A stretch of DNA of 42,803 bases. Origin: Phycisphaerae bacterium. Lineage in GTDB: Bacteria > Planctomycetota > Phycisphaerae > UBA1845 > PWPN01. The notes beneath the pieces are model-generated. The model worked only from the letters and a program-made list of their open reading frames with translations. It was not told the origin of the DNA and did no database searches. Of this stretch, positions 1 through 41,447 are shown in pieces. How positions within the stretch are numbered: the stretch's first letter is position 1; each line of letters opens with the position of its first letter. The stretch is from the NCBI GenBank assembly GCA_016928855.1, contig JAFGKA010000016.1, forward strand, positions 1-42,803, in the 5' to 3' direction. A program made the translations under genes and the position numbers.

Positions 1-1019
1 GGCTTGATGTTGCTTTCCGTCGTGCCGACGATGATGGCGTTCATGCCGCTGTCGGCAAGGATCTTGATGGGTTTTTCGAGATCGAGATCCGGCAGTTCCT
101 CGATCCCGCCGTCCCGGGTGGCCTTGACCAGCCGTAGCCGGCGGATCTGCTCCTGCAGGGCCTTACGCTGCTCGGTGTTCTCGATCGCGATCATCTCCTG
201 CAATGTCTTGGCGAGCGTGTCGGCCTCCGCCTTGAGCAGGGGGAACACGGCCAGTGTCGATCGTCCGCCGAACTCACTTTTCGGTTCACGGTCAATCAGT
301 TCGATGAGTTTGCGAACCGTCTCGAAGTCCTTCTGCGGGGCGATGATCAGCAGGCTGTTGTTCGGCGCGATCTGGACGTCGATCGGGCTCGGCCGGGTGA
401 CGCCCGCGCGCTTCTGCAGTTTCTCCAGCGTCTGACGGACGATTTCCGCGGCTTCGCTGGCGCGGATGTGTTCAAGCTCGACGGGCTCCCAGGTCTGAAT
501 CTCGTCGGCAATCGAGGGGGCGCCATCGATGCCATCGATCAGGATGCGGATGCGATCGAGGTTGTCCTTGGTGCCGGCGACGATGATCGTGTTGCTCAGT
601 TCGTCGGCCATGATGGCGACCTGGTCCTCAGGACGCGATACGGTGCCCTGTTGGCGAACCATATCGGACCAGAGTCGCTGAAGGCTCGGCGCAAGCTGCT
701 GCGCCTGGGCGTTTTTCAGGTGAAACAGCTCGATCGTGGGCGCGGGGCCGGCCTGTTCCATGGCCGCGATCAGCATCTGGATCAGGTCCAGATCGCTTTG
801 CGTGCCGACGATGACAAGCTGATCGCCGACGACCTCAATGCGCGCACTGTCGCTCAGCTCAGTCGGCCCCATGTATTGCACGGACACCGGCTGCGTGGTC
901 GCCGGCGGGGTCGGCGCGGGCTGCGTGGTGACGACAGGCAGGGCGGCCGCCGGCTGCGTCGTGGCCGGCGGCGTTTGCCCGAGAACCGCTGCGATGATTA
1001 TCCATTGAAACAACATCAT
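1..1019 (-). CDS. Secretin N-domain repeat protein, C-terminus beyond window (possible GspD)
   Basis: An open frame runs from ATG at 1019 off the left edge, with 339 residues visible. It begins 11 bases after the stop of the giant repeat protein, and a GGAG lies just before the start, so it is the next gene of the T2SS operon. The first residues (MMLFQWIIIAAVLG) look like a signal peptide, followed by a Pro/Thr/Gln-rich linker. About four secretin-N-type units follow. Each has a first half such as VELEHIRASEAAEIV and a second half such as NNSLLIIAPQKDF ending in a helix with LIELID. In T2SS clusters the secretin often follows gspM, so this could be the true outer-membrane secretin GspD with its barrel domain past the edge. 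It could equally be a second barrel-less repeat protein. The visible part cannot decide. Confidence 0.75.
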   Translation of the reverse strand, partial: MMLFQWIIIAAVLGQTPPATTQPAAALPVVTTQPAPTPPATTQPVSVQYMGPTELSDSARIEVVGDQLVIVGTQSDLDLIQMLIAAMEQAGPAPTIELFHLKNAQAQQLAPSLQRLWSDMVRQQGTVSRPEDQVAIMADELSNTIIVAGTKDNLDRIRILIDGIDGAPSIADEIQTWEPVELEHIRASEAAEIVRQTLEKLQKRAGVTRPSPIDVQIAPNNSLLIIAPQKDFETVRKLIELIDREPKSEFGGRSTLAVFPLLKAEADTLAKTLQEMIAIENTEQRKALQEQIRRLRLVKATRDGGIEELPDLDLEKPIKILADSGMNAIIVGTTESNIK

Positions 1020-1030
1020 GGATCTCCACG

Positions 1031-4000
1031 TTACGCGCTATGCCGCAACGCCTCATTGATTTCCGCATGCTCAAGGTCCGCCGCACTGCGACGATACGAT
1101 CTGCCGCGGCTGCCTTGCTGCTGCTGCTGGAGCTGGTCGATCACCCGCTTCACGTCGTCCGGGCGGACGTTCTTCAGCGGTACGATCAGGACTCCGGTCC
1201 CGCCCGGGGGCTTCATCTTCTCCAGTTGGGCGACCAGCTTCTCCACCTCCGGGTACAGGGCGGGCGAGCCGGAGACGAGCAGCGAGTTCGTGCGCTCGTC
1301 GGCGCCGATACTGATTTGCAGCGGCTTCGTCCCGGTCTGGGTGGCCATGTAGCGCTGGCCGGTATTGATCGTCTGTTCGATCTGGGCCGCGAGGTTCGTC
1401 ACGTTGATGCCCTGGGCGACGCTGACCAGCTTGATGGTGCCGAGTGTCTCGTCGGTCTGCTGGTCCATGTCTTTGACCATGCCCTGGATCAGATTGAAGT
1501 CCGCCGGCCGTGCCCGGATGATGAGCGAGTTCGTCCGGTCATCGGCGAGGATGACCGGGATCGAGCCGGGCGTTTGCCGGGTGCGCTGCTGTCGTGCCGG
1601 ATCCGTGAAGACCTGCGACAGCGTGTTCGCGAGCTGGGCGGCGTTGGCGACTTCGAGCTTGACGATCTGCGGGGCGTTGGCGCCTTCCACCTCGTTGTCG
1701 AGTTTGCGAATCAGATCCACGACATGCTGAACCTGTTCGTTGCCGCCGCTGATGACGATTGCGTTCGACGACGACGAGGCCGCTACCCGGACATCACCAG
1801 TCAAGGCACCGCGGGGCGAACTCGATCCGGTCTTCCGCAGAAACTCCTGCAGAATCGTCAGCGTTTCGCTCGCGTCCACGTGTTCGAGCATCACGACCTG
1901 CATCTCGTCCATCTTGCCGAGGTCGGGTACGTCGAGTTCCTTGACGATCGCTTGAATCTCGGCGTATTGACTGTCGTCGGCCTGCACCAGAAGCCGGTCG
2001 GTGCCCGTGATGTGCTGGATCTGCACCGCAAACTGGCCCTGGCGAATCCGGCCCCCGGAATACATGAAGACCTGTTGCAGCGAACGGGCGACGTCGGCGG
2101 CTTCCGCGTTGGTCAGTTCGAGCACGCGGACTGGCCGCTTCGTTTCGCTTTCCTGGTCCATGTCCTTGACGAGCGTTTCGACCTTGGCCATCTGTTCCTT
2201 CGAGGCCGAGACGATCAACGTGCCGCTGGTGTAGTCGGAGGTCGAGATCACGACGTCGCGCGGGTTCTGCTGCCCGGTCCGCGAACGAAACGCCATGTTG
2301 ATCGCGTTCGACAGTGAACTCGGCTCGACGTACGTCAGGCGGAACGTCCGCACTTCCATGTCCGCGTCTTCGATGCCCGGAACGTCGAGGGAGGTGACGA
2401 GTTCCTTGACCTGCTCTATTTCATCCTTCGGGGCGTTGATCAGAATCGTATTTGTCGAGGCGATCGCCTGCAGCGTGGCAGGGAGTTGGCCGGTAGAACG
2501 CGTTCGCCGGCGAGTCTGGGCCAGCAGGTTGGTGATCGTCGTGGCCACATCCGTCGCGCTGGCGTTCTTGAGCGCGATCTGTTCGGTGATGCGTTCCTGA
2601 CCTGTTTCGGTGTCCAGCTCGGCGATGATTTTGTCGGCCTGGGCGATGTTCTCGGCGCTGGCCGTGACCACGATCGACTGGGTACCGGCTTCCGGCACCA
2701 CAGTGACACGGTCCTTCTCGGAAACCCGGCCTGGCTTGGTCAGTGCGGCCGTCAGGGCGTTCGTGACGCCATAGATATCCGCAAAGCGGACCGGATAGAC
2801 CTTCGTCTCACGCACGTTGGCCGTGGTTTCCGGCGTGTCGAGCGTCTTGACGAGGTTCGTGATGTCTTCCAGATTCGCCTTCGAGCAGTAGACGATGAGC
2901 TGGTTGGTGTTGGTGTCCGACGTCAGGCTGATCGCCATGTCCTGTGGCTTGAGGTTCCGCTGCACGCCGGCTGTTCGGAGGGCCGTCTGGCGCTGTGTGA
3001 CGTAGGATGTGACCGTGGTCATCACGTCGTCCACTTTGGCGTGTTCGAGCGTGATATGATGTGTGCCCAGCTCCTGCTCACCCTCGGGCGAGATCTGTTC
3101 GAGTGGATCGATCACGCTGGCCTTGATCTCGTTAATCTGTGGCGTTGTGGCATAGACGAAAACCGCGTTGGTCAGCGGCTCGGCATAGGCCTTCGGTGGG
3201 GGGACGCTCTTGCCCGGCACGTCGGCGTACAGGGAGTTGATCGTGGCGGCCACCGACGTCGCCTGGGCCTTGGTCAGGTAGAAGTAGTGTGTCTTCTGTA
3301 CGACCGGATCCGGGGGCAAGACATCGACGGTCTTGATGACCGTCTCCGCGATCGCCATGGTTTGTGCGCTGCCGACGACAAAGAGCGTGTTGGTACGTGA
3401 GTCCGGCGTGATGGCGATTACGCCCATGTCGATGCCCGAGCCCGGCCGTAACTGCCGAGCGAGCTGCATGATCATGTCTTTGAACTGATCGACGACTTCG
3501 ATGGCGTACGCATGCTCGAGTTTGAAGGGCCTGACCATCAGCGTCTTCTGCATGTCCATTGCTTCGGCGGTCTTCTTGATCTGCTCGAAGACGTCCGGCG
3601 GGGCGGTGACCAGCAGCATGCCGCTGGCGGTGTCGCCGGTGATCTTGACCTGCATCTTGCCGCGGCCGCCTCGCGAGCCGAAGGCGGCCGTCAGCTTGTC
3701 GGCGACCACGGCGGCATCCGCTTGCTTGAGCGCGAGTTGCTTCGGTTCGAACTTGCCGCGGGCATCCTGGTCCAGCGCCAGAACCTGGGTCTCGATCTTG
3801 GTTCGCAGGACCTTGGGCGCCCAGACGAACAGCGTGTTCGAGGTCTGGTCGGCACTGATCCGGATCGACTTGCCGACCTCACGGGCCGCCTGGCCGCTCG
3901 TGTACGTGTCCATCAGGGCCTTCGCCAGCCCGCTGGCGTCCGCGTACTCGAGCGTGAAGGTCTGGACGACCTGCTCATCTTCGAGCTTCTTGTCGAGTTC

Positions 4001-7000
4001 CTTGACCACGGCCTCAATGCGCTCAAAATCCGGCTTGAGTGCCCGGATGACCAATTGGTTCGTTCGTACGTCGCCGGCGAACTGCACAGCGCCGATTCGC
4101 GCGGGCGTGACGCTTTCTCCGTCGCCGCCACCACGCCGGCCGGCGGTGCCTTGGAACGTCTTTTCCAGGTGCGGCAGAACGTCGCCGACGTCGGCGTTGT
4201 TGAGTGTAATGGTTCGGATTTCGAGCGGTACGGGTTTCTCCTCCAGTTTGTTGATCAGCTCTTCCACCAGCTTCATGCCGTCGTCCGGGGCGACCACGAT
4301 CACGCTGTTGGTCGTGGCGTCGCTGGTGATGGTGATCTGTTCGCTCGGGTTGATCGACGTTTTGCCTGGGCCGGCCTGCAGATCGAGGACCTGCTCCTGA
4401 AGCTGTTCGATCATGGAGGAGGCCTGCTGCCATTGCCCGGCAGCGCCGGGAACGCCGCCGCGGGGCATGCGCGTGGCCCGCGGCCCCTGGCGATCGTCGA
4501 TCTTGAGAATGGCCTTCAATGCATCCTCGACCTCGCCGGCGTTGAGTTTCTCGAGCTGGAAGATACGGATCTGGATGCCGGGATCGTCGCTCGGTCGGTC
4601 AATTTTCAACAACAGCTCGGCAATTTCGCGATAGTCATCCGGATGGGCCCGGATGACCAGCGTGCGGGTGCGCACATCGGGGAAGACCCGAATGCGGTCG
4701 CCGCGGAGCAGCGGCCGCGGACCGTCGCCTGCCTGTTCCTCTTCTCCCTCTCTGCGTTCACGGTCGGGGCGGCGATCGCGGCCCTCTCCGTCTTCGCCGC
4801 GGCTGCGGCTCTGGTCGCCCTCGCGAGCCTGCTGGGCGCCCTGTTGCTGGCGGGCCTGCTGGGCCTGCTGTTGTGCCTGCTGGCGGGCTTGCTGGGCCTG
4901 TTGCGCGGCCTGGGCGGTGCGACCTTCATTGAACATCTGTTCGAGGATTGTGGCCGCGACATTGACGTTGACGTAACTGAGCTTGAAGACACGGATGTCC
5001 GTCGTCTTCGGCAGGGACTCCAATTGGTCTTCGAGCGCTTTGATAAGCTCCTGCAGTTCTTCCACCTGCTTCGGCTGACCGACGATGATCATCGTGTTTT
5101 CCATGTCGTCGATCATGATCTGCGGTCGGCCGGATTCCTTGAGAGCCTCGGCGGCGTTCCACACGTTGTCGATCATCGAAGGCGGGGTGTCGTCGGCCTG
5201 AACCGGTGCGGCTGGGGCTGGCTTGGGTTCGGCCTCAGGCTTGGCTGGTGCGGCTTTCGGGGCAGGGGCTGGTTCGGCCTTCACTGCTGGCGAAGGCGAA
5301 GCCTCTGTCTTCGCCGGCGTGGCTGTTGGGACAGGAGCTGGCTTGGGCTCTGCCTTTGCCGGAACCGGCTTCGGTGCCGGCGCCGGCTTGGCCTCGGGCT
5401 TTGCTGGGGCCGTTTTCGGCGCGGGTGTCGGTTGGGCCGGCTGCGTGGCAACGGGTTTCGCAGGACGGGTGGCAGCCGGCTGGGTAGTCGGCGCCTGAGT
5501 CAATGGCAGCGAGGCTAGCGCCGCACGCAGCCTGGACAGCTCCGCCGTGGGCACGAACGGGTGCGTCGTTGTCGTCGTCGTGGTTTCCGCGGGCGGCTCA
5601 CTGCCCGGAATGAAGATCGGCACTTCCTGAATGATCCGTTCCGGATCCTTCATGCGGTCGTACTGATCGACGCGTCGGAATTCGGGCTCACTCTGCAGGC
5701 CCGCGCCGTAGGTTTTCAGGAAATCGGCGAGCTTCGATGCCGGAAGCCCTTCCACCTGCTTGACCACGACGATCGTCTTCGACCGCCAGTCCTTCACGAT
5801 CCGGTCCAGGTAGCCTTCGGCAGCCTTGAGTTTGTCGCCTTTGGCTGTGATGATGATCGAGTTCGTATAGCGCATCGCGCGGACATCCGGGGCATCCCAG
5901 TACCCATAGACGTCCCAGAGGACGTCCTCGAGCCGGTCGGCGACGTCCTCGGCATCGACCTTCTCGGACAGATCGATCGTCTTCATGAATAGCCCCTCTC
6001 CGGTGGCGATCATGCCGTCCTTGGTTGTCGTATCCAGATCAGCTTTTCTCGCTTCGGCGAGCGACTCCTTGAGCTGAACGAGGTTGTCCACCTGCGGGAT
6101 CTTCTCGTAGTCCGCCGCGACGAGCAACATGTTGTTCATGTAGTCAGCGCTGACCAGGAGTGTGCCGCTGCTGCCACGGCCCCGGCGTGAACTCGACGAT
6201 GATGAGTAGTCGCTGCTCCAGTCGTCGAAGCCACCGACGGTTTCGCCGCCGAGCAGGCCCTTGATCATGTCCTGCACCTCGTAGACATCGGCGAATTTGA
6301 GCACATAGGTCTTGATGACCGGGCCCTCCGGCCGTGCCTCGGCATCGATCTCCTCGGCCAGCCGAGTCGCCTTCTCGACCTTCTCCTCAGGGCCCCGCAG
6401 CAGCAGCGAGTTGCTCTGCGGAATCGCGGTTATGCTAACGCTGCCCGGTTCGCCGCTACTGCTTTGCATCCCGGTGTACATATACCGGAAGAACGATCGG
6501 CGACTGCGGCTCGAGCCGCCGCTCTTGTCGTCGGCGTTCGCTGCCGTCTCGATCAGCGGTGCGAGTTCCTCCGCCTTGCCCTTCTGAAGGGCGATGATGC
6601 GGACCACGGATTCACCGAATTCCGACGCGACATCCAGCTCCTTGATCAGCTCGTCGGCCAGCGGCATGAGGTCTTCGCTCGTCGCGATGATCAGTCGCTT
6701 GCCGCTGGCGTCGGCTTCCACGCGAGGACTCAATCCCATGCTGCGGGAGCCGCGGCTTCGTTTGGCCTGATCCACGTCCCACTTGCGATCGAGGATCTCC
6801 TCGACGGTGTCGCGGATGTCGTCCGCGCGGACGTGCGTGAGTGCAAAGTACCGCACGCTGAAGGGCGATTCCTTCGGTGCGTGCGTCTGGATCGTCTCGA
6901 TATGCTGGACGATCTGCTCCATCTTGTCCTTTGGGGCCGAAACAAACAGCGTCTCCGAGCTGGTATCGGCCGTGCACTGGACCCGTGTGCGATCCCGGTA

Positions 7001-34352: not shown

Positions 34353-35174
34353 TCAGCATCGCCGCCGCCGGGCAAGCAAGACGCCACTCGTGAGAAGCAG
34401 CGTCAGCGTCGCTGGCTCCGGTACGGCGACGGCGTATGACTCGGCATCAATGTAGTAGCGCAGCGCGTACGCCGTATCGTATTCCAAGTCAACGTCGAAG
34501 AGGAAGTTGACCTGGCCACTCTTGCTCTTCGGCCCCGGACCGTCGAGTCGGTGGTACTCTCTTTGGAAAGCCAGGATGTCGCCGTCCTCGTCGTAGACTT
34601 CGGCGTAGAGTGTTACGTCGGCGGACCAGTTGTCGTCGGGGTCGGAGTTGCCTTGCAGGTACCAGTCGCCGGTGACCGCGACGTTCACGGACGTTGGCCC
34701 GGGTGGGGGTGAGCCGCCGCCGGCATACACGATCCAGAAGAGGTTGTCATATTGGGCGAGTCCGGCCGCCGCCGACCAGCTTGCCGGGATGTCGTGGGCG
34801 CTGCTCTGCACGCTGCCAACCTTGGTGAACCCGCCGCCGGCGGCGCTGGCTTCGATGTTCGTCGCCGACGCCGAGGGGACAGTTGCGGCCGTCTGGACAT
34901 GTCCATCACCCGCCGGGGCCCACTCTTCCGTATCGACGCCGTAATCGTGATACAGCGGCGGGCACGCGTGATAGACCTCAGCCTCGGCATGGACGAGCCA
35001 GTCTTCGGGGTTCGCCGTGTTCCAGACCACCATATCGTCGGCTGCCGTGACCTCACCGCTCAGCGAGCAGTTGTACGCCTGCCCGGTAGCGCCGCCCAAG
35101 GCCGGCGTGGCAAGGACGAGCACGCTGAGTAACGCGAGCGCGCGATATAGGGTGTCAATGGTGCTCCGTGTCAT
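34353..35174 (-). CDS. PEP-CTERM sorting-domain protein
   Basis: The protein has 273 residues. AAGGAG seven bases before the ATG is a strong start. An N-terminal signal peptide (ALALLSVLVLATPALGG) is followed by a beta-rich domain with acidic loops. The C-terminus has the complete PEP-CTERM pattern: VPEPATLTL, a short hydrophobic helix and a final Arg cluster. Known PEP-CTERM proteins are exported and then processed by an exosortase, which is not encoded in this window. The middle part matches nothing I recognise. It lies 174 bases after the RHS gene on the same strand and may have its own promoter. Confidence 0.9.
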   Translation of the reverse strand: MTRSTIDTLYRALALLSVLVLATPALGGATGQAYNCSLSGEVTAADDMVVWNTANPEDWLVHAEAEVYHACPPLYHDYGVDTEEWAPAGDGHVQTAATVPSASATNIEASAAGGGFTKVGSVQSSAHDIPASWSAAAGLAQYDNLFWIVYAGGGSPPPGPTSVNVAVTGDWYLQGNSDPDDNWSADVTLYAEVYDEDGDILAFQREYHRLDGPGPKSKSGQVNFLFDVDLEYDTAYALRYYIDAESYAVAVPEPATLTLLLTSGVLLARRRRC

Positions 35175-35194: not shown

Positions 35195-35356
35195 TCAGGC
35201 GGCCTTCGGTATTACGGGCAAAGGTGTCCTGTCGCCCGTTATTGCGCCTGGCCGCTCAGGCAACGGCTTCTCGAGCATGGGGGCAAGGACGTTCCTGGCC
35301 TCCGCACACGCATAGAACTCTTTCCTTACGGTGGTGAAGACTCGCCTCTTATTCAT
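35195..35356 (-). CDS. Small ORF overlapping the RHS stop codon
   Basis: This 53-residue frame starts at ATG 35356, eight bases inside the end of the RHS gene. AGAGG sits six bases before it, and the ATGAATAA arrangement would couple its translation to the RHS stop. The product (MNKRRVFTTVRKEFYACAEA...) is basic at its start and Pro-rich at its end. No family is recognised. A tiny gene directly after an RHS toxin-type protein is where an immunity gene would be expected, but this one is shorter than most immunity proteins and may not be real. Confidence 0.35.
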   Translation of the reverse strand: MNKRRVFTTVRKEFYACAEARNVLAPMLEKPLPERPGAITGDRTPLPVIPKAA

Positions 35357-38300
35357 GTACGACCTCTCCCCGGTATCGATAATACATGTGTCCAACAAGA
35401 GCCGGACGATACCATTTCCACCGTGTTGCACCGTTGAGGGCGCCTTTGACTTCGGTGTACTTCTTTCCGTCAGCACAGATTCTCACCTGAAGCCGTGGGT
35501 TTGCTATTTGCGTCTTTCCCTCGAAGGGTTTCCATTCCCATCCAATCCCGGCTCCCTTGTAGCTCAGGCCGATGCTCAGGCCGACGTCCTTCCAGTAATC
35601 GAGTTCTTCCTCCAACTTGACCTCCCATACATATTGGAGGCATTGCACACACTGTCCCTTCTCTCGGCTTCCGAACGTGGCGTCCTTTGCGGCGTCAGAA
35701 CACTTCTTCCAGTATTCCTCGGGACCCTCGTGTCGTACGTCCGCGGCTGCCTCGTCGGCGTTCGGCAGCGGTTCGGTCTCCATCGTGCGATCCTTGTCGC
35801 TGAATTTGCAGAACCCGTTGACTTCCTTTGTGGTTCCAGATACCCGCAGCCGGGCGGCAACCTGTACCTCTGTCGAGTCCGCAGTTCCAAGATAGGGCCC
35901 CTTATAGCCCCATCCGAAATCCTCATAGATAACTTGCATCACGCCGGCCCTGACGACGGTTCCGTCCGCAGGGCAGCAACTTGTTCCAAGAGGGTCGATG
36001 AAGTGTGGCACATGATACGCGGCGTAGAGGCTGAGTCCGTCGGTGTACCCGTCGGGGTCACGGCTTACAAATCTGCCGATGCGCACGTTGTACATTCGTT
36101 GTCGGTAGTGGAGCAAGGAGGTTTCCGGATCAAGCCGCCTGCCCCTGTTGGCCCACGGATTGTCGTATGCGGAGTGGGCATTTGATCCGCTGCCGTCGGG
36201 GCCGGACACGGTAGCTTCACCATACGGATCGTAGCTGTAACGTTCCACCGCCTGGCCACCCAAATCAGTCAGGCTGAGCACGCTGCCCAGGCTGTCAGCA
36301 TGATAGTAGTGGCTTTCGCTCGGGGTGCCCCGATCCATTCGGAGGATTTCATCAACTTGCGCTCCGAAGGTGTAGCTGCGTGCCAGCGCAGCGTTCTCGT
36401 ATTCTTCGATCTCTCGCCAGCCCGGCGTGATCACGTAGATCGTGGACACACCGCCAGCAAGCTTCCTGATGCGGCGGCCTAGGGCGTCGTACCGGTATTC
36501 GCCGAGGACCGTGCCGGAATCCTTATCCTTGACCATTGTCAGCCGATTCTCGGAGCGCAGGGCGCTGCCTATCGTGGTCTGGTAGTCGTAGTAGTACTCT
36601 TTCTCGCCGTCGTCGAGCAGGTTTCCGTTCTTGTCGTGCGTCTGGTTGTAGCCGCTGCTGAGGGGGGCCGGGGCCAGGCCACCGGCTGCGGGGCGATTCG
36701 GGCCGTTGAACGCGGCCTGGAATACGACAAAGTCACCCAGATCCACGTCGTTGTCGGCGTCGAAGTCGGCAGTGTCGCAGCCGGCACTTGCCGGCGGCCG
36801 GTTCGGTCCGTTGAAACAGCCTTGGAACGCGTTGAAGTCGGCCAGGTCCACGTCGCCGTCGCCATCGAAATCGGGCGATCCAGAACCGCCCGCGCCGGCG
36901 GGGGCGGCACAGGGCGTGACCATGAAGTCATCTGCTATCCCATCGTCATCGGGCACCGGCGGCAAGCCGTCGGTGGATGGGTCGTCATACTCGTTCATCT
37001 GGTTGACCGAGTTGCAGTAGACGGCGTCCTCGCCGGTATCGAGGTCGTGGATGCCGAACTCACGCCAGTTGTGCACCGGATCGAGATCCCACGTGCGGTG
37101 CCGTCGCGGCGTGGCGATGTCGCCGCCGACCCACTGGCCGCTCTGATAGTCAATCAGCCGATACGTGTCGTCATACGTGTACTTCTCGGAGTGCGTGACT
37201 GGTTTGGCGTCGTTGTAGGGGATGGTCTCCTCCAGATTCCGTGCATTGAGCCGGTTGCCCTCGCGGTCATAATCATGGGCGAAGCCGGCGAACGTCGTCA
37301 CGCCGTCCGTCGCGACATGCCGCAGCTCGGTAATCCAGTCGTTGTCGTTGTACGCGTAGCGGGTTTCGGTGCCGTTCGCGAACGTCTTCGTCAGCACGCG
37401 GTTCGCCAGGTCGTACGCATAGGTGGCGGCGCCGCTTACATCGGCGAGGCGTTCGCGGGCGTCACGCGTTTCCACGACGACCTTGCCGCTGGGATACGTG
37501 ATCGTACGCGTGCCCGCTGCGATGTTGTACGCGTATGTGATCGTATAGGAATACGTTTGCGGCAGGTCGGTCTGTGTGGTGGTCGCGATGCGTCCGGCGC
37601 AGTCATACGTGAAGCCGACATGCGAATGCGCGTTGTCTGCCGAGAGCAGCCGGCGGCCCTTATCGTACGTGAACACATCAATCTCGCCGTTGGCATATTC
37701 GCGTCGCACCAGCCGATTGAGATCGTCATACGTATACGTGATGATGTTGCCGGGCGAGCCGCCGTCGCCCATGTGATCTTCACGGCTGACCAGATTCCCG
37801 ACGGCATCATACACGAATCGCGGCGATGTTCCGTCCGCATAGGTCTCCGCGATGCGGCGGCCAGCGGCGTCATACGTATAGGTTGTGGCGTTGCCGTTGG
37901 CGTCGGTGATTCCCGTCAGATTGCCGGTACCGTCGCATGTATACGTGGTGGTCGCGGCCGGCCCGGCCTTGACCGGCCAGACGGACGAGGCGATCCGCCG
38001 GTTGGCGGCGTCGTACTGGTAGACGGTCTCGTTGCCCTCGCGATCGATGACCTTCGTCTGATTGCCGGCGGTGTCGTACTCGTACTGCGTCGTCTGCCCC
38101 ATCGGGTCCGTCACGGCAATCACCCGATCGAGGTTGTCGTAGGCTGTCGTGGTGATGTGGCCGAGCGAGTCCGCCCGGGTGATGCGGTCGCCGACGCTGT
38201 CGTACGTATAGGTGCTGATGTCCCCCAACGCGTCGTACACGCGGACGAGTCGGTTCCCGAGGTCGTAGGCCGAATGAATCACGTTGCCGTTGGGCCGGTG

Positions 38301-40841
38301 CTCGGCGATGCGGTTGCCTGCCCAGTCATAGACGTACGAGACCGTCTCGCCACAGCCGTTCGACACGCCCGCGACGCGATGGCGCGACGTATAGGTGTAC
38401 GTGGTGACAACGCCGTTCGGATCGGTCCGTGACAGCCGGTTACCGTGCGGATCGTACGTATATGCCGTTAAGGCGTCGTCGCCATCCGGCGCGGCATCGC
38501 AATCGTGCACGCCGACTTGCCGGACTTCGAGAATCCGCCGGTCCAGCCTGTCGTATTCGAACCGCGTTACCCGGCCGAGCGCGTCGATGATGCAGGCCAC
38601 GAGGCTCGACCCCGGCGTACCGCAGGCACAGCCGCCGCCACCACCGCCGCCGCCCGCGAAGTACCGGTACTCGGTGACGTTGCCCAGCGGGTCAGTCACG
38701 AAACGCTGCCGATTCAGGGCATCGTATTGGTACGTGGTCGTGTTCCCGTTCGGATCGGTTTCGCCGACCTTGTTACCGACCGGGTCGTACGTGTAATGCG
38801 TTTGGAGTGCGAGTCCGCCCGGGTCGCGCACCGTCCGCACCAGTCGGCCGAGTCCGTCGTACTCGTACTGCGTGACGACCCCGTTGGGATTGGTTTCGCC
38901 TGTCCGGTTGCCATTGTTGTCGTATTCGAAGTGTGTCGTTCGGCTCAGCCCGCCGTCATCCTCGGTAACTCTCACAAGCCGCCCGCGGGAATCATATTCG
39001 TACCGGGTGACCGAACGGTAGTTTGTTTCATCGACCCAGTCGGTGTGCACCGCGATCTGGCGGCCCTTCGCATCATATTCGTAATGAGTAGTCGTACCCG
39101 TCGGGTCCGTCTTCGTTACGACCCGGTCGCGGCCGTCATAAGTGTACGTCGTGGTCTGGTCTTCGTTGGCCGGCGTGCCGGGGTCATCGTTGTGGACTGT
39201 TTCTGTGACGATGTTGCCGAACGCGTCATACGTGTACGAGGTTTCGCCGCCGGCGGGGTCGATGACTCGGCTGATCGTTCCGTCGGGATTGTATTCCCGT
39301 TCCGTTACGTTGCCGTTGCGGTCGCGTTTGCGCCAGAGCCGTCCGTCCGGGTAGTAGTCGTATTCGATTGTCGCATCGACCGGGGTTTCGATCAGCGGGT
39401 CGATCTCTTTGACCTGGTTTCCGTTGGTGTCGTATTCATATTCCCAGACGTCCCCGTCCGGCTCGATCTTTCGGGTGATACGGTTGCGCAGCGGCTCGTA
39501 TTCGAATTGCGTTTCGTTCCCCTCGGCATCGCGTACCACCGTCCGGTTGCCCCGGGTATCGTACTCGTACTCGGTTGTATGGCCGTTGGCATCGGTGATA
39601 CGGCTGGGACGTAGCGTCGCACTGTCATACTCGACGGTCTGGATCCCACCGGCCGGGTCGACCGTCTGCACGATGTGGCCACGGGTGTTGTAAGTGTATT
39701 GCCACGTGTTGCCCTCGGCGTCGATGACTGTGACGGTTCCCGGGATGTAGTGCATTTCGCCCGTGGCGATGGACGCTTCATAGTCCGGTTGCCAGTTCGA
39801 CGGATTGGTAAAGTCTGCGATCGTCTCGCCAGCCGGGTCGCGAAGCTGGTAGACTTTGCCCTGAGTGTCGTATTCCACGGCGTACGTCCCGCCGTCGGGG
39901 GCCGTCTCCGTCGTCAACTGTCCACGGAAGTTGTATTCGAAGGCGTATGTGGCGCCGTCCGGTACCTCGACAGCCGAGAGCTGGCCGAGCGACGTATCGT
40001 AATCGAAGTTCACCTCGCGGTCTGATGCCGAGGCTTTTGTCAGCTTGCCTTCCGGCGTGTATTCGAACTCCATCGTGCTGCCATAGGGGTCCACCACCGT
40101 CGTCAACAGGCCGTTTGGTTCGTACGCCAGAGTCGTTACGCGCCCGTTCGGGTCAATGATGGCGTCGAGCAGGTAGGGAATCCCTGACGGTTCCCAGGGG
40201 ACGCTCCGCTGCTGAAACTGATAGAGGGTCCCGTCCGGCCACACTACTTCGCCTGTGGTGGGGCTGGTCTGGCTGAAGGTAAAGAAATCGCCGGTCGAGG
40301 CCGTGTAGACGCCGCCTCGTCCGCCGGTGAACTTGACGATCCCGCCGTCGCCACGCATCCAGAGCATGTCCGCGCCGCGGTCGAGCAGGGTGTCGTTGTA
40401 CGAGTGTGTCCAGCCCGCGCCCATCGTCGTATCGACGACCGTGTTCGTCCCATCGGCCAGCGTTGAGCTGTAAACCAGTTCCAACGAGAGCCCCGCTTCG
40501 TCCGACCCGACCGATAGCGCGTCCAGGCGTTCGTATACTTCGTTGGTCGTGACATCGACCGAAGGACCTTCATGGCCAGACGAAGCCACACATTCCTGGC
40601 ATTCGAGACAGCCCCCGCGCGGATTCCGCGCCTTGGGTTGGAGCCAGCCACCGACGACCTGCCGCATTTCCGCATCGCTGAGTGTGCGGATGCCACCCGT
40701 GGATGCGAAATCCAGCACTGGCTGGTGCCCATTCATCCAGGCCAACCCAACGACAATTGTCACAGCCGCTCCGCTGACCAGAGTTGCCATAGTCAGGCGA
40801 CGTTGGCCTACCGACCGGGAATTGCGATCATGGCGCCACAT
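35349..40841 (-). CDS. RHS/YD-repeat protein with double-glycine leader and dockerin-like insert
   Basis: The protein has 1,830 residues. AAGGAG seven bases before ATG 40841 fixes the start. A basic N-terminus and a membrane helix (about 18-36) are followed by LSDAEMRQVVGG (54-65), a bacteriocin-type double-glycine leader end, then a Cys-rich CLECQEC. From about 95 to 1700 the chain holds a DUF6531-like opening (LELVYSSTLADG) and dozens of YD repeats of the xxTxYxYDxxGN type that would form a beta cage. Residues 1323-1384 are a dockerin-like module. The conserved RHS core (DPYGE, DPETSLLHYRQRMYN, GRFVSRDP, FIDPLG) ends near residue 1618. The last ~205 residues form a separate domain I cannot name, where RHS proteins usually carry a toxin. 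It overlaps the C39-like gene by 34 bases. Confidence 0.92.
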   Translation of the reverse strand: MWRHDRNSRSVGQRRLTMATLVSGAAVTIVVGLAWMNGHQPVLDFASTGGIRTLSDAEMRQVVGGWLQPKARNPRGGCLECQECVASSGHEGPSVDVTTNEVYERLDALSVGSDEAGLSLELVYSSTLADGTNTVVDTTMGAGWTHSYNDTLLDRGADMLWMRGDGGIVKFTGGRGGVYTASTGDFFTFSQTSPTTGEVVWPDGTLYQFQQRSVPWEPSGIPYLLDAIIDPNGRVTTLAYEPNGLLTTVVDPYGSTMEFEYTPEGKLTKASASDREVNFDYDTSLGQLSAVEVPDGATYAFEYNFRGQLTTETAPDGGTYAVEYDTQGKVYQLRDPAGETIADFTNPSNWQPDYEASIATGEMHYIPGTVTVIDAEGNTWQYTYNTRGHIVQTVDPAGGIQTVEYDSATLRPSRITDANGHTTEYEYDTRGNRTVVRDAEGNETQFEYEPLRNRITRKIEPDGDVWEYEYDTNGNQVKEIDPLIETPVDATIEYDYYPDGRLWRKRDRNGNVTEREYNPDGTISRVIDPAGGETSYTYDAFGNIVTETVHNDDPGTPANEDQTTTYTYDGRDRVVTKTDPTGTTTHYEYDAKGRQIAVHTDWVDETNYRSVTRYEYDSRGRLVRVTEDDGGLSRTTHFEYDNNGNRTGETNPNGVVTQYEYDGLGRLVRTVRDPGGLALQTHYTYDPVGNKVGETDPNGNTTTYQYDALNRQRFVTDPLGNVTEYRYFAGGGGGGGGCACGTPGSSLVACIIDALGRVTRFEYDRLDRRILEVRQVGVHDCDAAPDGDDALTAYTYDPHGNRLSRTDPNGVVTTYTYTSRHRVAGVSNGCGETVSYVYDWAGNRIAEHRPNGNVIHSAYDLGNRLVRVYDALGDISTYTYDSVGDRITRADSLGHITTTAYDNLDRVIAVTDPMGQTTQYEYDTAGNQTKVIDREGNETVYQYDAANRRIASSVWPVKAGPAATTTYTCDGTGNLTGITDANGNATTYTYDAAGRRIAETYADGTSPRFVYDAVGNLVSREDHMGDGGSPGNIITYTYDDLNRLVRREYANGEIDVFTYDKGRRLLSADNAHSHVGFTYDCAGRIATTTQTDLPQTYSYTITYAYNIAAGTRTITYPSGKVVVETRDARERLADVSGAATYAYDLANRVLTKTFANGTETRYAYNDNDWITELRHVATDGVTTFAGFAHDYDREGNRLNARNLEETIPYNDAKPVTHSEKYTYDDTYRLIDYQSGQWVGGDIATPRRHRTWDLDPVHNWREFGIHDLDTGEDAVYCNSVNQMNEYDDPSTDGLPPVPDDDGIADDFMVTPCAAPAGAGGSGSPDFDGDGDVDLADFNAFQGCFNGPNRPPASAGCDTADFDADNDVDLGDFVVFQAAFNGPNRPAAGGLAPAPLSSGYNQTHDKNGNLLDDGEKEYYYDYQTTIGSALRSENRLTMVKDKDSGTVLGEYRYDALGRRIRKLAGGVSTIYVITPGWREIEEYENAALARSYTFGAQVDEILRMDRGTPSESHYYHADSLGSVLSLTDLGGQAVERYSYDPYGEATVSGPDGSGSNAHSAYDNPWANRGRRLDPETSLLHYRQRMYNVRIGRFVSRDPDGYTDGLSLYAAYHVPHFIDPLGTSCCPADGTVVRAGVMQVIYEDFGWGYKGPYLGTADSTEVQVAARLRVSGTTKEVNGFCKFSDKDRTMETEPLPNADEAAADVRHEGPEEYWKKCSDAAKDATFGSREKGQCVQCLQYVWEVKLEEELDYWKDVGLSIGLSYKGAGIGWEWKPFEGKTQIANPRLQVRICADGKKYTEVKGALNGATRWKWYRPALVGHMYYRYRGEVVHE
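36690..36875 (-). other. Dockerin-like module inside the RHS repeats
   Basis: Residues 1323-1384 hold two calcium-loop segments (DFDGDGDVDLADF and DFDADNDVDLGDF), each followed by an FNGPNRP signature, with Cys in between. It interrupts the YD-repeat series shortly before the RHS core. The secreted repeat protein at 29137 has a matching module at its C-terminus, the usual position. Confidence 0.8.
40647..40682 (-). other. Double-glycine leader-cleavage site in the RHS protein
   Basis: The codons read LSDAEMRQVVGG, with hydrophobic residues at -4, -7 (Met) and -12 and acidic residues in between. This is the consensus cut by C39 peptidases of bacteriocin exporters. The predicted cut is after Gly65, just past the N-terminal membrane helix, and would release the RHS body. 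Confidence 0.6.
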
Positions 40842-41389
40842 ATCGTTTCTCCTTGGATGCTGCGCATGTCGTCGCCGCGCGCGGGACATACGCAGAGGAT
40901 GTAGCCATCAAACAGGCGATCAAACCGGGTCCGAGGTATCTTGCGCGCTCCAGTTCCGTGATCGACGACAGAGACCTGTTTGTCATCAACCGCCAGCAGC
41001 GCGAGGAAGTGGTAGGGACGCACATGGACGACTGCCGGCAACGGCAGCCGCGCCAGTGCATCTGCCTCTGCCTTCAATCCGATGAGATTCAAGCCGGCCT
41101 GTCGTCCCCATCGCGCCAGGTCATACAGGGTTGTGACCGTGCTCTTCGAGGTGCCTTCGTGCTGAAGCACTTCCCGCAGCCGCAGCGCGGCTTCGCTGTC
41201 ATGCGCATCGGCAACCGTCAGCAGGGCGGCCGGGCCGCAACTGGGGCTGCTCGCCAGTGGGCTGGCCGGAAAAGATGGCGAGGCTGTGGAGGCTGGCTGC
41301 TGCGTAGTGACCCCATGCCGAGCAACCACACCGGCGGCGATCAGCCCACTGCCAAGCAAGGCAACGTGCCATCGCGACGCCAGCTTCAT
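40808..41389 (-). CDS. Membrane-anchored C39-like cysteine peptidase
   Basis: The protein has 193 residues from ATG 41389, preceded by AAGGAGG at eight bases; a longer frame to 41620 crosses a terminator and is rejected. An N-terminal helix ([17 protein letters not shown]) is a signal or anchor. The C39 pattern follows: Cys51 in SCGPAALL, then [18 protein letters not shown] of which GLNLIGLK is the usual strand, LPLPAVVHV, His127 in PYHFLALL, Asp143 in VSVVDHGTG, and a closing FDGYILCV. The Gln that normally lies about six residues before the Cys is not visible, so activity is not certain. Unlike classic exporters it has no ABC transporter part. Its last 34 bases overlap the RHS gene, which carries a matching double-glycine site. 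Confidence 0.78.
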
Positions 41390-41411: not shown

Positions 41412-41447
41412 AAAAAAAAGAGAGCGCACCCCTGCGGGTGTCTCTCT
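41412..41447 (-). terminator. Intrinsic terminator in the leader of the C39-RHS operon
   Basis: On the minus strand AGAGAG and CACCC pair with GGGTG and CTCTCT around a 4-base loop (41419-41447), with a small internal bulge, followed at once by eight T. The T-run ends 22 bases before the C39 start codon. No minus-strand gene lies upstream in the next 340 bases, so this terminator acts on a leader transcript, as in attenuation or a riboswitch. Confidence 0.75.

What the first reader, a model, noticed from the sequence alone, without database searches (positions are those of the whole stretch)
40647..41389. C39-like peptidase coupled to an RHS protein with a double-glycine leader
The RHS protein carries LSDAEMRQVVGG right after its membrane helix. 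The gene in front of it, overlapping by 34 bases, encodes a C39-like peptidase, the enzyme class that cuts at such sites. C39 enzymes normally process small peptides and are fused to an ABC exporter. Here the substrate would be an 1,830-residue RHS cage and the peptidase is a stand-alone anchored protein. This suggests a release mechanism in which the anchored cage is freed by one cut after Gly65. I know of no described system with this exact arrangement.
Basis: partly seen in the sequence, partly recalled or inferred. Interest (0 to 1): 0.9.

Follow-up and report, generated by a model that had tools for sequence, protein, structure and literature searches.

The report
Export-side GG peptidase paired with RHS
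In two distantly related Phycisphaerae bacteria a small protease gene, apparently for an exported enzyme, directly precedes and overlaps the gene for a giant membrane-tethered RHS protein that carries that protease class's cutting signal just after its membrane anchor, which suggests a dedicated one-cut step that frees the giant protein.

Summary
C39 gene: 40808-41389 (-), Pfam E 2e-17, triad C51/H127/D143. RHS gene: 35349-40841 (-), 1,830 aa, 34-base overlap. LSDAEMRQVVGG ends at Gly65, after a membrane helix. It directly precedes an RHS protein (44% identical) with TM + LSDHQMQTVLGG; all C39-leader recognition positions (-12, -7, -4, -2, -1) are identical. Two class-level RHS relatives (L055, L057) with ordinary signal peptides lack motif and C39. 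The window's genome shows no C39-ABC exporter. RHS identity collapses after DPLG, giving variable tips as in polymorphic toxins. Most likely: an exported C39 peptidase matures or releases a membrane-tethered RHS protein by cutting after Gly65. Caveats: only two pairs; cleavage unproven; both C39s lack the usual Gln six residues before Cys; 'anchored' peptidase and 'regulated' release are inference. Exported stand-alone C39 (FapD) and N-terminal trimming of giant surface proteins (LapG) or Rhs (TseI, RhsA) are known; the combination appears undescribed in the papers searched.

The parts
40808..41389 (-). Stand-alone C39-family peptidase gene (193 aa, stop included); N-terminal hydrophobic segment, about 25-residue linker, C39 domain residues ~47-170
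41237..41239 (-). Codon of catalytic Cys51 (SCGPAA)
   Evidence: aligned with the Cys of 6mpz/4s0f
41009..41011 (-). Codon of catalytic His127
40961..40963 (-). Codon of catalytic Asp143
35349..40841 (-). RHS/YD-repeat protein, 1,830 aa from the ATG with a good ribosome-binding site (ORF open to ATG 40889)
40740..40796 (-). N-terminal membrane helix of the RHS protein (residues 16-34)
   Evidence: hydropathy; low-confidence helix 8-34
40647..40682 (-). Double-glycine leader motif LSDAEMRQVVGG (residues 54-65), predicted cut after Gly65
35985..40646 (-). RHS protein after the predicted cut: basic linker, RHS N-terminal region, YD repeats (with GC-dockerin-like insert) and core ending at DPLG (Asp1595 and Asp1616 at the positions of the RHS aspartyl self-protease pair)
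35349..35984 (-). Variable C-terminal tip (about 211 aa), no significant Pfam match, not alignable with the ortholog's tip
35195..35356 (-). 53-aa ORF overlapping the RHS stop codon; possible partner of the tip or chance
34353..35174 (-). PEP-CTERM protein gene next downstream; the ortholog locus also has a PEP-CTERM gene downstream
41412..41447 (-). Hairpin followed by eight T in the 5' leader of the C39-RHS transcript (terminator- or attenuator-like)

Best explanation
The two genes form a processing pair. Both products are exported across the inner membrane, probably by the Sec route. The RHS protein stays tethered by its uncleaved N-terminal helix, with the leader motif LSDAEMRQVVGG just outside the membrane. 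The C39 peptidase, on the same side of the membrane, recognises the motif and cuts after Gly65, removing helix and leader and freeing the roughly 1,765-residue RHS shell with its variable C-terminal tip for surface display or secretion. Shown: gene pair, overlap, motif, triad, fold, conservation of pair plus motif in a second family, variable tips. Inferred: export-side location, the cut itself, what release achieves, and any regulation.
For: Orthologous pair in G068/L011 with C39 about 50% and RHS 44% identical. The motif has 7 of 12 identities against 12/39 before and 7/34 after it (hypergeometric P 0.03), with recognition positions -12 L, -7 M, -4 V, -2/-1 GG all identical. The C39 model core (block pLDDT 75-94, residues 51-170) matches peptidase domains of PCAT1, ComA and the double-glycine protease crystallised with its leader peptide, 6mpz. 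The best NCBIfam match is the peptidase part of NHLM_micro_ABC1, a double-glycine exporter. The genome's three C39 hits include no ABC exporter-type protein. RHS homologs L055 and L057 without the motif have no C39 next to them in the stretch read.
Against: Only two pairs were found in several hundred planctomycete genomes sampled (handles run to G752) and one pattern scan of 84,980 genomes. The Gln six residues before Cys, present in 27 of 34 homologs, is Leu or His in the pair, although three same-order ABC-type homologs lack it too. The peptidase's N-terminus gives no certain location. No cleavage data exist. The model of the RHS N-terminus is low confidence.
Confidence: 0.6

Rival explanations
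1. The C39 protein is a non-cleaving binding partner or chaperone: it holds the GG leader helix of the RHS protein during export, as the C39-like domain of HlyB holds its substrate without proteolysis.
For: The Gln at -6 is missing in both pairs; the C39-like domain 3zua is among the fold matches; HlyB-type models also match weakly by sequence.
Against: Cys, His and Asp are all kept in both orthologs. Degenerate C39-like domains typically lose the Cys (general knowledge), and both glycines are kept in the substrate.
Confidence: 0.15
2. A variant of the best explanation: the C39 peptidase is a constitutive, dedicated signal-peptidase substitute that matures the RHS protein right after translocation, with no retention or regulated-release step.
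For: The genes overlap and the RHS ribosome-binding site lies inside the C39 gene, which favours simultaneous production. No LapD-like regulator was identified beside the pair.
Against: Related planctomycete RHS proteins manage with ordinary signal peptides, so a special protease would have no obvious benefit unless timing or location matters.
Confidence: 0.35
3. The pairing and the GG string are coincidental; the peptidase acts on another substrate and the RHS protein stays anchored.
For: Small sample; C39 and RHS proteins are each common.
Against: Motif expected in 12 of 200,000 shuffles; pair and motif both kept at 44-50% protein identity while the other neighbours differ.
Confidence: 0.08
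4. The motif directs the RHS protein to a C39-containing ABC exporter (type I-like export) and not to Sec.
For: Canonical C39 leader; genome G068 does hold a 744-aa C39 frame of exporter size elsewhere.
Against: The window's genome shows no C39-ABC exporter, the leader follows a membrane helix and is not at the N-terminus, and a dedicated stand-alone peptidase is adjacent.
Confidence: 0.05

Closest known systems
FapD of the Pseudomonas Fap amyloid system (NF058616; PMC5557850)
   Same: Stand-alone, Sec-exported C39 peptidase encoded with a secreted surface protein; the active-site Cys is required for secretion of FapC
   Different: Different operon and substrates; FapD's target was unclear and Fap proteins have no canonical C39 site; P0001 scores 22 bits against a 330-bit cut-off
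LapG / DvhG release of giant adhesins (BTLCP; PMC13090378)
   Same: Export-side thiol protease, encoded with the system of a giant surface protein, cuts near its N-terminus after a targeting helix and frees it; DvhG is membrane-anchored
   Different: Different protease family, di-alanine site, adhesin held by an outer-membrane export channel, c-di-GMP receptor control; none of these seen here
C39 peptidase-containing ABC transporters (PCAT1, ComA, NHLM exporters)
   Same: C39 fold, Cys-His-Asp, leader motif with L-12, M-7, V-4, GG
   Different: Peptidase faces the cytosol, fused to an ABC exporter, small peptide substrates; here no ABC part and an 1,830-aa substrate
Rhs effectors with N-terminal self-cleavage (TseI PMC7170923; RhsA PMC8765631)
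   Same: RHS shell, variable tip, N-terminal part removed by proteolysis
   Different: Cleavage is intramolecular and T6SS-linked; here a separate enzyme would cut, and no PAAR/VgrG part was found by Pfam
PrsW-RHS polymorphic toxins (PMC3482391)
   Same: Membrane-linked protease proposed to release an RHS toxin from its N-terminal side
   Different: PrsW is an intramembrane protease fused to the toxin

Membership tests
Peptidase C39 (PF03412) | Profile score above the curated cut-off | tested here: met
   63.6 vs 22 bits
Peptidase C39 (PF03412) | Cys-His-Asp catalytic residues | tested here: met
   C51, H127, D143 aligned with 6mpz
Peptidase C39 (PF03412) | Gln six residues before the Cys (oxyanion hole); common but not universal in the family | tested here: not met
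   Leu45 here, His in the ortholog; 27 of 34 homologs have Gln
Peptidase C39 (PF03412) | Cleaves after GG | not testable with these tools
   No biochemical data
PCAT / double-glycine ABC exporter | Fused ABC transmembrane and ATPase domains | tested here: not met
   193-aa ORF, C39 domain only
FapD (NF058616) | Score above the equivalog cut-off | tested here: not met
   22.2 vs 330 bits
RHS/YD-repeat proteins | YD repeats and RHS-associated core | tested here: met
   PF05593 E 5e-119, TIGR03696 41.7 vs 32.5 bits
Polymorphic toxin (RHS type) | Conserved shell, variable C-terminal tip | tested here: met
   Identity drops from 42-63% to 17% after DPLG; two sequences only
Polymorphic toxin (RHS type) | Recognisable toxin domain and immunity gene | tested here: inconclusive
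   No Pfam toxin match; HEAT-repeat protein after the ortholog's RHS gene, 53-aa ORF here
LapG/DvhG release system | BTLCP protease, AAG site, LapD receptor | tested here: not met
   Peptidase matches C39 only; the site is GG; the receptor was not searched for beyond the neighbouring genes

The most novel reading that the evidence does not exclude
A Lap-like release checkpoint built from other parts: an export-side C39 peptidase controls, by one cut at a double-glycine leader, when a membrane-tethered RHS polymorphic toxin is let go, and the leader-bearing substrate is a giant protein, not a peptide.
Probability: 0.3. Interest if true: 0.82.

Novelty: new variant of a known kind. Interest (0 to 1): 0.62.

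Why it matters
If the cut occurs, the double-glycine leader and C39 peptidase, a pair known from peptide export on the cytosolic side, also work on the outer side of the membrane on a giant RHS protein. That would give FapD-type exported C39 enzymes, whose recognition site was unclear, a concrete and testable substrate sequence, and would give one answer to how RHS proteins leave a planctomycete cell.

Tried and rejected
Searching for more pairs: C39 query in 114 same-order genomes (1 ortholog), phylum sample (392 genomes, others nearly all of ABC-exporter size), class sample (397), another phylum draw (236, none), GTDB pattern scan (same ortholog plus two Sphingomonadales loci with exporter-size C39 frames), IMG/VR (none), plasmids (one weak Azospirillum hit); RHS N-terminus query in class and phylum samples. 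PEP-CTERM neighbours as a homologous third component: both loci have one, but the bodies without signal and tail show no BLAST homology and the genome has about 45 such matches. Riboswitch in the C39 leader: no credible Rfam match. Tree of C39 domains: the two pair members group with other non-exporter C39 proteins, but support is weak (0.50-0.84) and a few rows were mis-trimmed, so no origin is claimed. The other C39 hits of the own genome are a C39 joined to a long C-terminal extension and a different papain-like protein; no RHS gene was seen next to them. The RHS N-terminal structure model was too poor to use.

Full report
What is there. On the minus strand, 41389-40808 encodes a 193-residue protein whose residues 47-169 match Peptidase_C39 (E 2.1e-17, 63.6 bits, cut-off 22). 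Cys51, His127 and Asp143 align with the catalytic residues of solved C39 peptidases. A two-sequence AlphaFold2 model has a confident core (block pLDDT 75-94 for residues 51-170) and its best solved matches are the peptidase domains of PCAT1 and ComA and the double-glycine protease 6mpz, solved with its leader peptide. There is no ABC part. The start has a clear ribosome-binding sequence, AAGGAGG.

The RHS gene. The frame 40889-35349 has two possible ATG starts. It carries 24 RHS-repeat stretches and an RHS-associated core. Residues 16-34 are strongly hydrophobic, and no obvious signal-peptidase site follows them (by eye; no signal-peptide predictor was available). Residues 54-65 read LSDAEMRQVVGG. 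This is a canonical C39 leader: Leu at -12, Met at -7, Val at -4 and Gly-Gly at -2/-1 (established knowledge of the C39 family).

Is it chance? The motif class appears in 12 of 200,000 shuffles of the first 120 residues. As a DNA pattern it occurs three times in 5.28 Mb with none in the reversed-pattern control; the other two are not N-terminal leaders: one lies at residue 338 of its frame, the other gave no motif-bearing frame.

The comparative test. Among 114 genomes of the same order one further orthologous C39 was found, in a different family (G068, contig 233; public record JAGMDK010000308.1, Phycisphaerae bacterium RS_17_44). It is again a stand-alone gene, of at most 188 codons, and it runs directly into an RHS gene: the C39 stop TAG and an RHS GTG share a base, and the RHS ATG follows at once. 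C39 identity is about 50% over the domain; RHS identity is 44% over 1,690 alignment columns. The RHS N-terminus has a hydrophobic segment followed by LSDHQMQTVLGG. Seven of 12 motif positions are identical against 12 of 39 before it and 7 of 34 after it, and all five recognition positions are kept. The enrichment over the flanks alone is modest (hypergeometric P 0.03). Two class-level RHS relatives (L055, L057), found by the RHS N-terminal query, begin with ordinary-looking signal peptides, have no such motif and no C39 gene in the stretch around them (about 1.5 kb on each side of the match). The window's genome has three C39 hits and no exporter-type one, so the adjacent protein is the natural candidate for acting on the motif.

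How rare is it? Searches of class and phylum samples, plasmids and viral contigs and one pattern scan of GTDB genomes gave no third pair. These searches are limited: some score only the best eight candidates per genome, the GTDB scan used two short peptide patterns, and metagenomes were not available. So the pair is rare in what was searched, and the comparative case rests on n = 2.

Variable tips. RHS identity is 42-63% in the core up to the DPLG motif (residue 1616) and about 17% beyond it; the tips are 215 and 186 residues counted from DPLG. Asp1595 and Asp1616 sit 21 residues apart, close to the 22 of the aspartyl self-protease pair of TseI (PMC7170923); in the ortholog the spacing is 27 and the first Asp is not followed by Pro. 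No Pfam toxin matches either tip. After the ortholog's RHS gene comes a HEAT-repeat protein with a lipoprotein-like start; HEAT immunity proteins are listed for polymorphic toxins (ImmHEAT, PMC3482391). In the window a 53-residue ORF overlaps the RHS stop. These are leads, not tests.

Mechanism. The simplest reading is a processing pair on the export side: Sec puts the RHS protein out with its N-terminal helix left in the membrane, and the exported C39 cuts after Gly65. Shown are the genes, their overlap, motif, triad, fold and conservation. Inferred are the location, the cut and its purpose. Whether this is plain maturation or timed release is open; I give them similar weight. The main doubt about catalysis is the missing Gln at -6, Leu here and His in the ortholog, while 27 of 34 collected homologs have Gln. 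Three ABC-type homologs from the same order also lack it, so its absence is not proof of inactivity.

Comparison with the known. FapD is the nearest relative in way of working: a periplasmic C39 whose Cys is needed for FapC secretion, with its target unresolved (PMC5557850). The protein is not a FapD by score (22 vs 330 bits). LapG and DvhG show the logic of one export-side cut freeing a giant protein, with a different protease family and site (PMC13090378). N-terminal trimming of Rhs proteins is known but intramolecular (PMC7170923; PMC8765631), and PrsW-RHS fusions put an intramembrane protease at the N-terminus (PMC3482391). A text search for Rhs protein with C39 found only that survey, which lists C39-like domains as toxins, and none for YD repeat with double-glycine. 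The held library lacks most subscription journals, so 'undescribed' is limited to it.

Verdict. The release mechanism is plausible but untested. The parts are known; their combination is a new variant.

Noticed in passing
41412-41447 (-): Hairpin followed by eight T about 20 bases before the C39 start, inside a well-folding leader (z -3.2); a TTGACA box lies at 41604-41599. Looks like an attenuator; no Rfam match.
   Followed up: partly
34353-35174 (-) and L014 about 562-1413 (-): A PEP-CTERM protein gene lies downstream of the RHS gene in both loci (with a HEAT-repeat gene between in the ortholog). Bodies not detectably homologous; the genomes hold 45 and 29 PEP-CTERM matches.
   Followed up: partly
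L014 about 2044-2700 (-): HEAT-repeat protein with a lipoprotein-like N-terminus directly after the ortholog's RHS gene, in the place of an immunity gene.
   Followed up: partly
35195-35356 (-): 53-aa ORF whose ATG overlaps the RHS stop codon.
   Followed up: no
L015 (G000 contig 495) about 3486-5052 (+): A second exported-looking C39 protein of this genome has the C39 domain joined to a long C-terminal extension; similar 491-494-residue frames occur in class relatives L063 and L072.
   Followed up: partly
L006, L007, L009: Three ABC-type C39 homologs of the same order lack the usual Gln six residues before the catalytic Cys.
   Followed up: no
about 36702-36872 (-): GC-type dockerin-like insert inside the RHS repeats (P0002 residues 1340-1396), not present at that place in the ortholog.
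   Followed up: no
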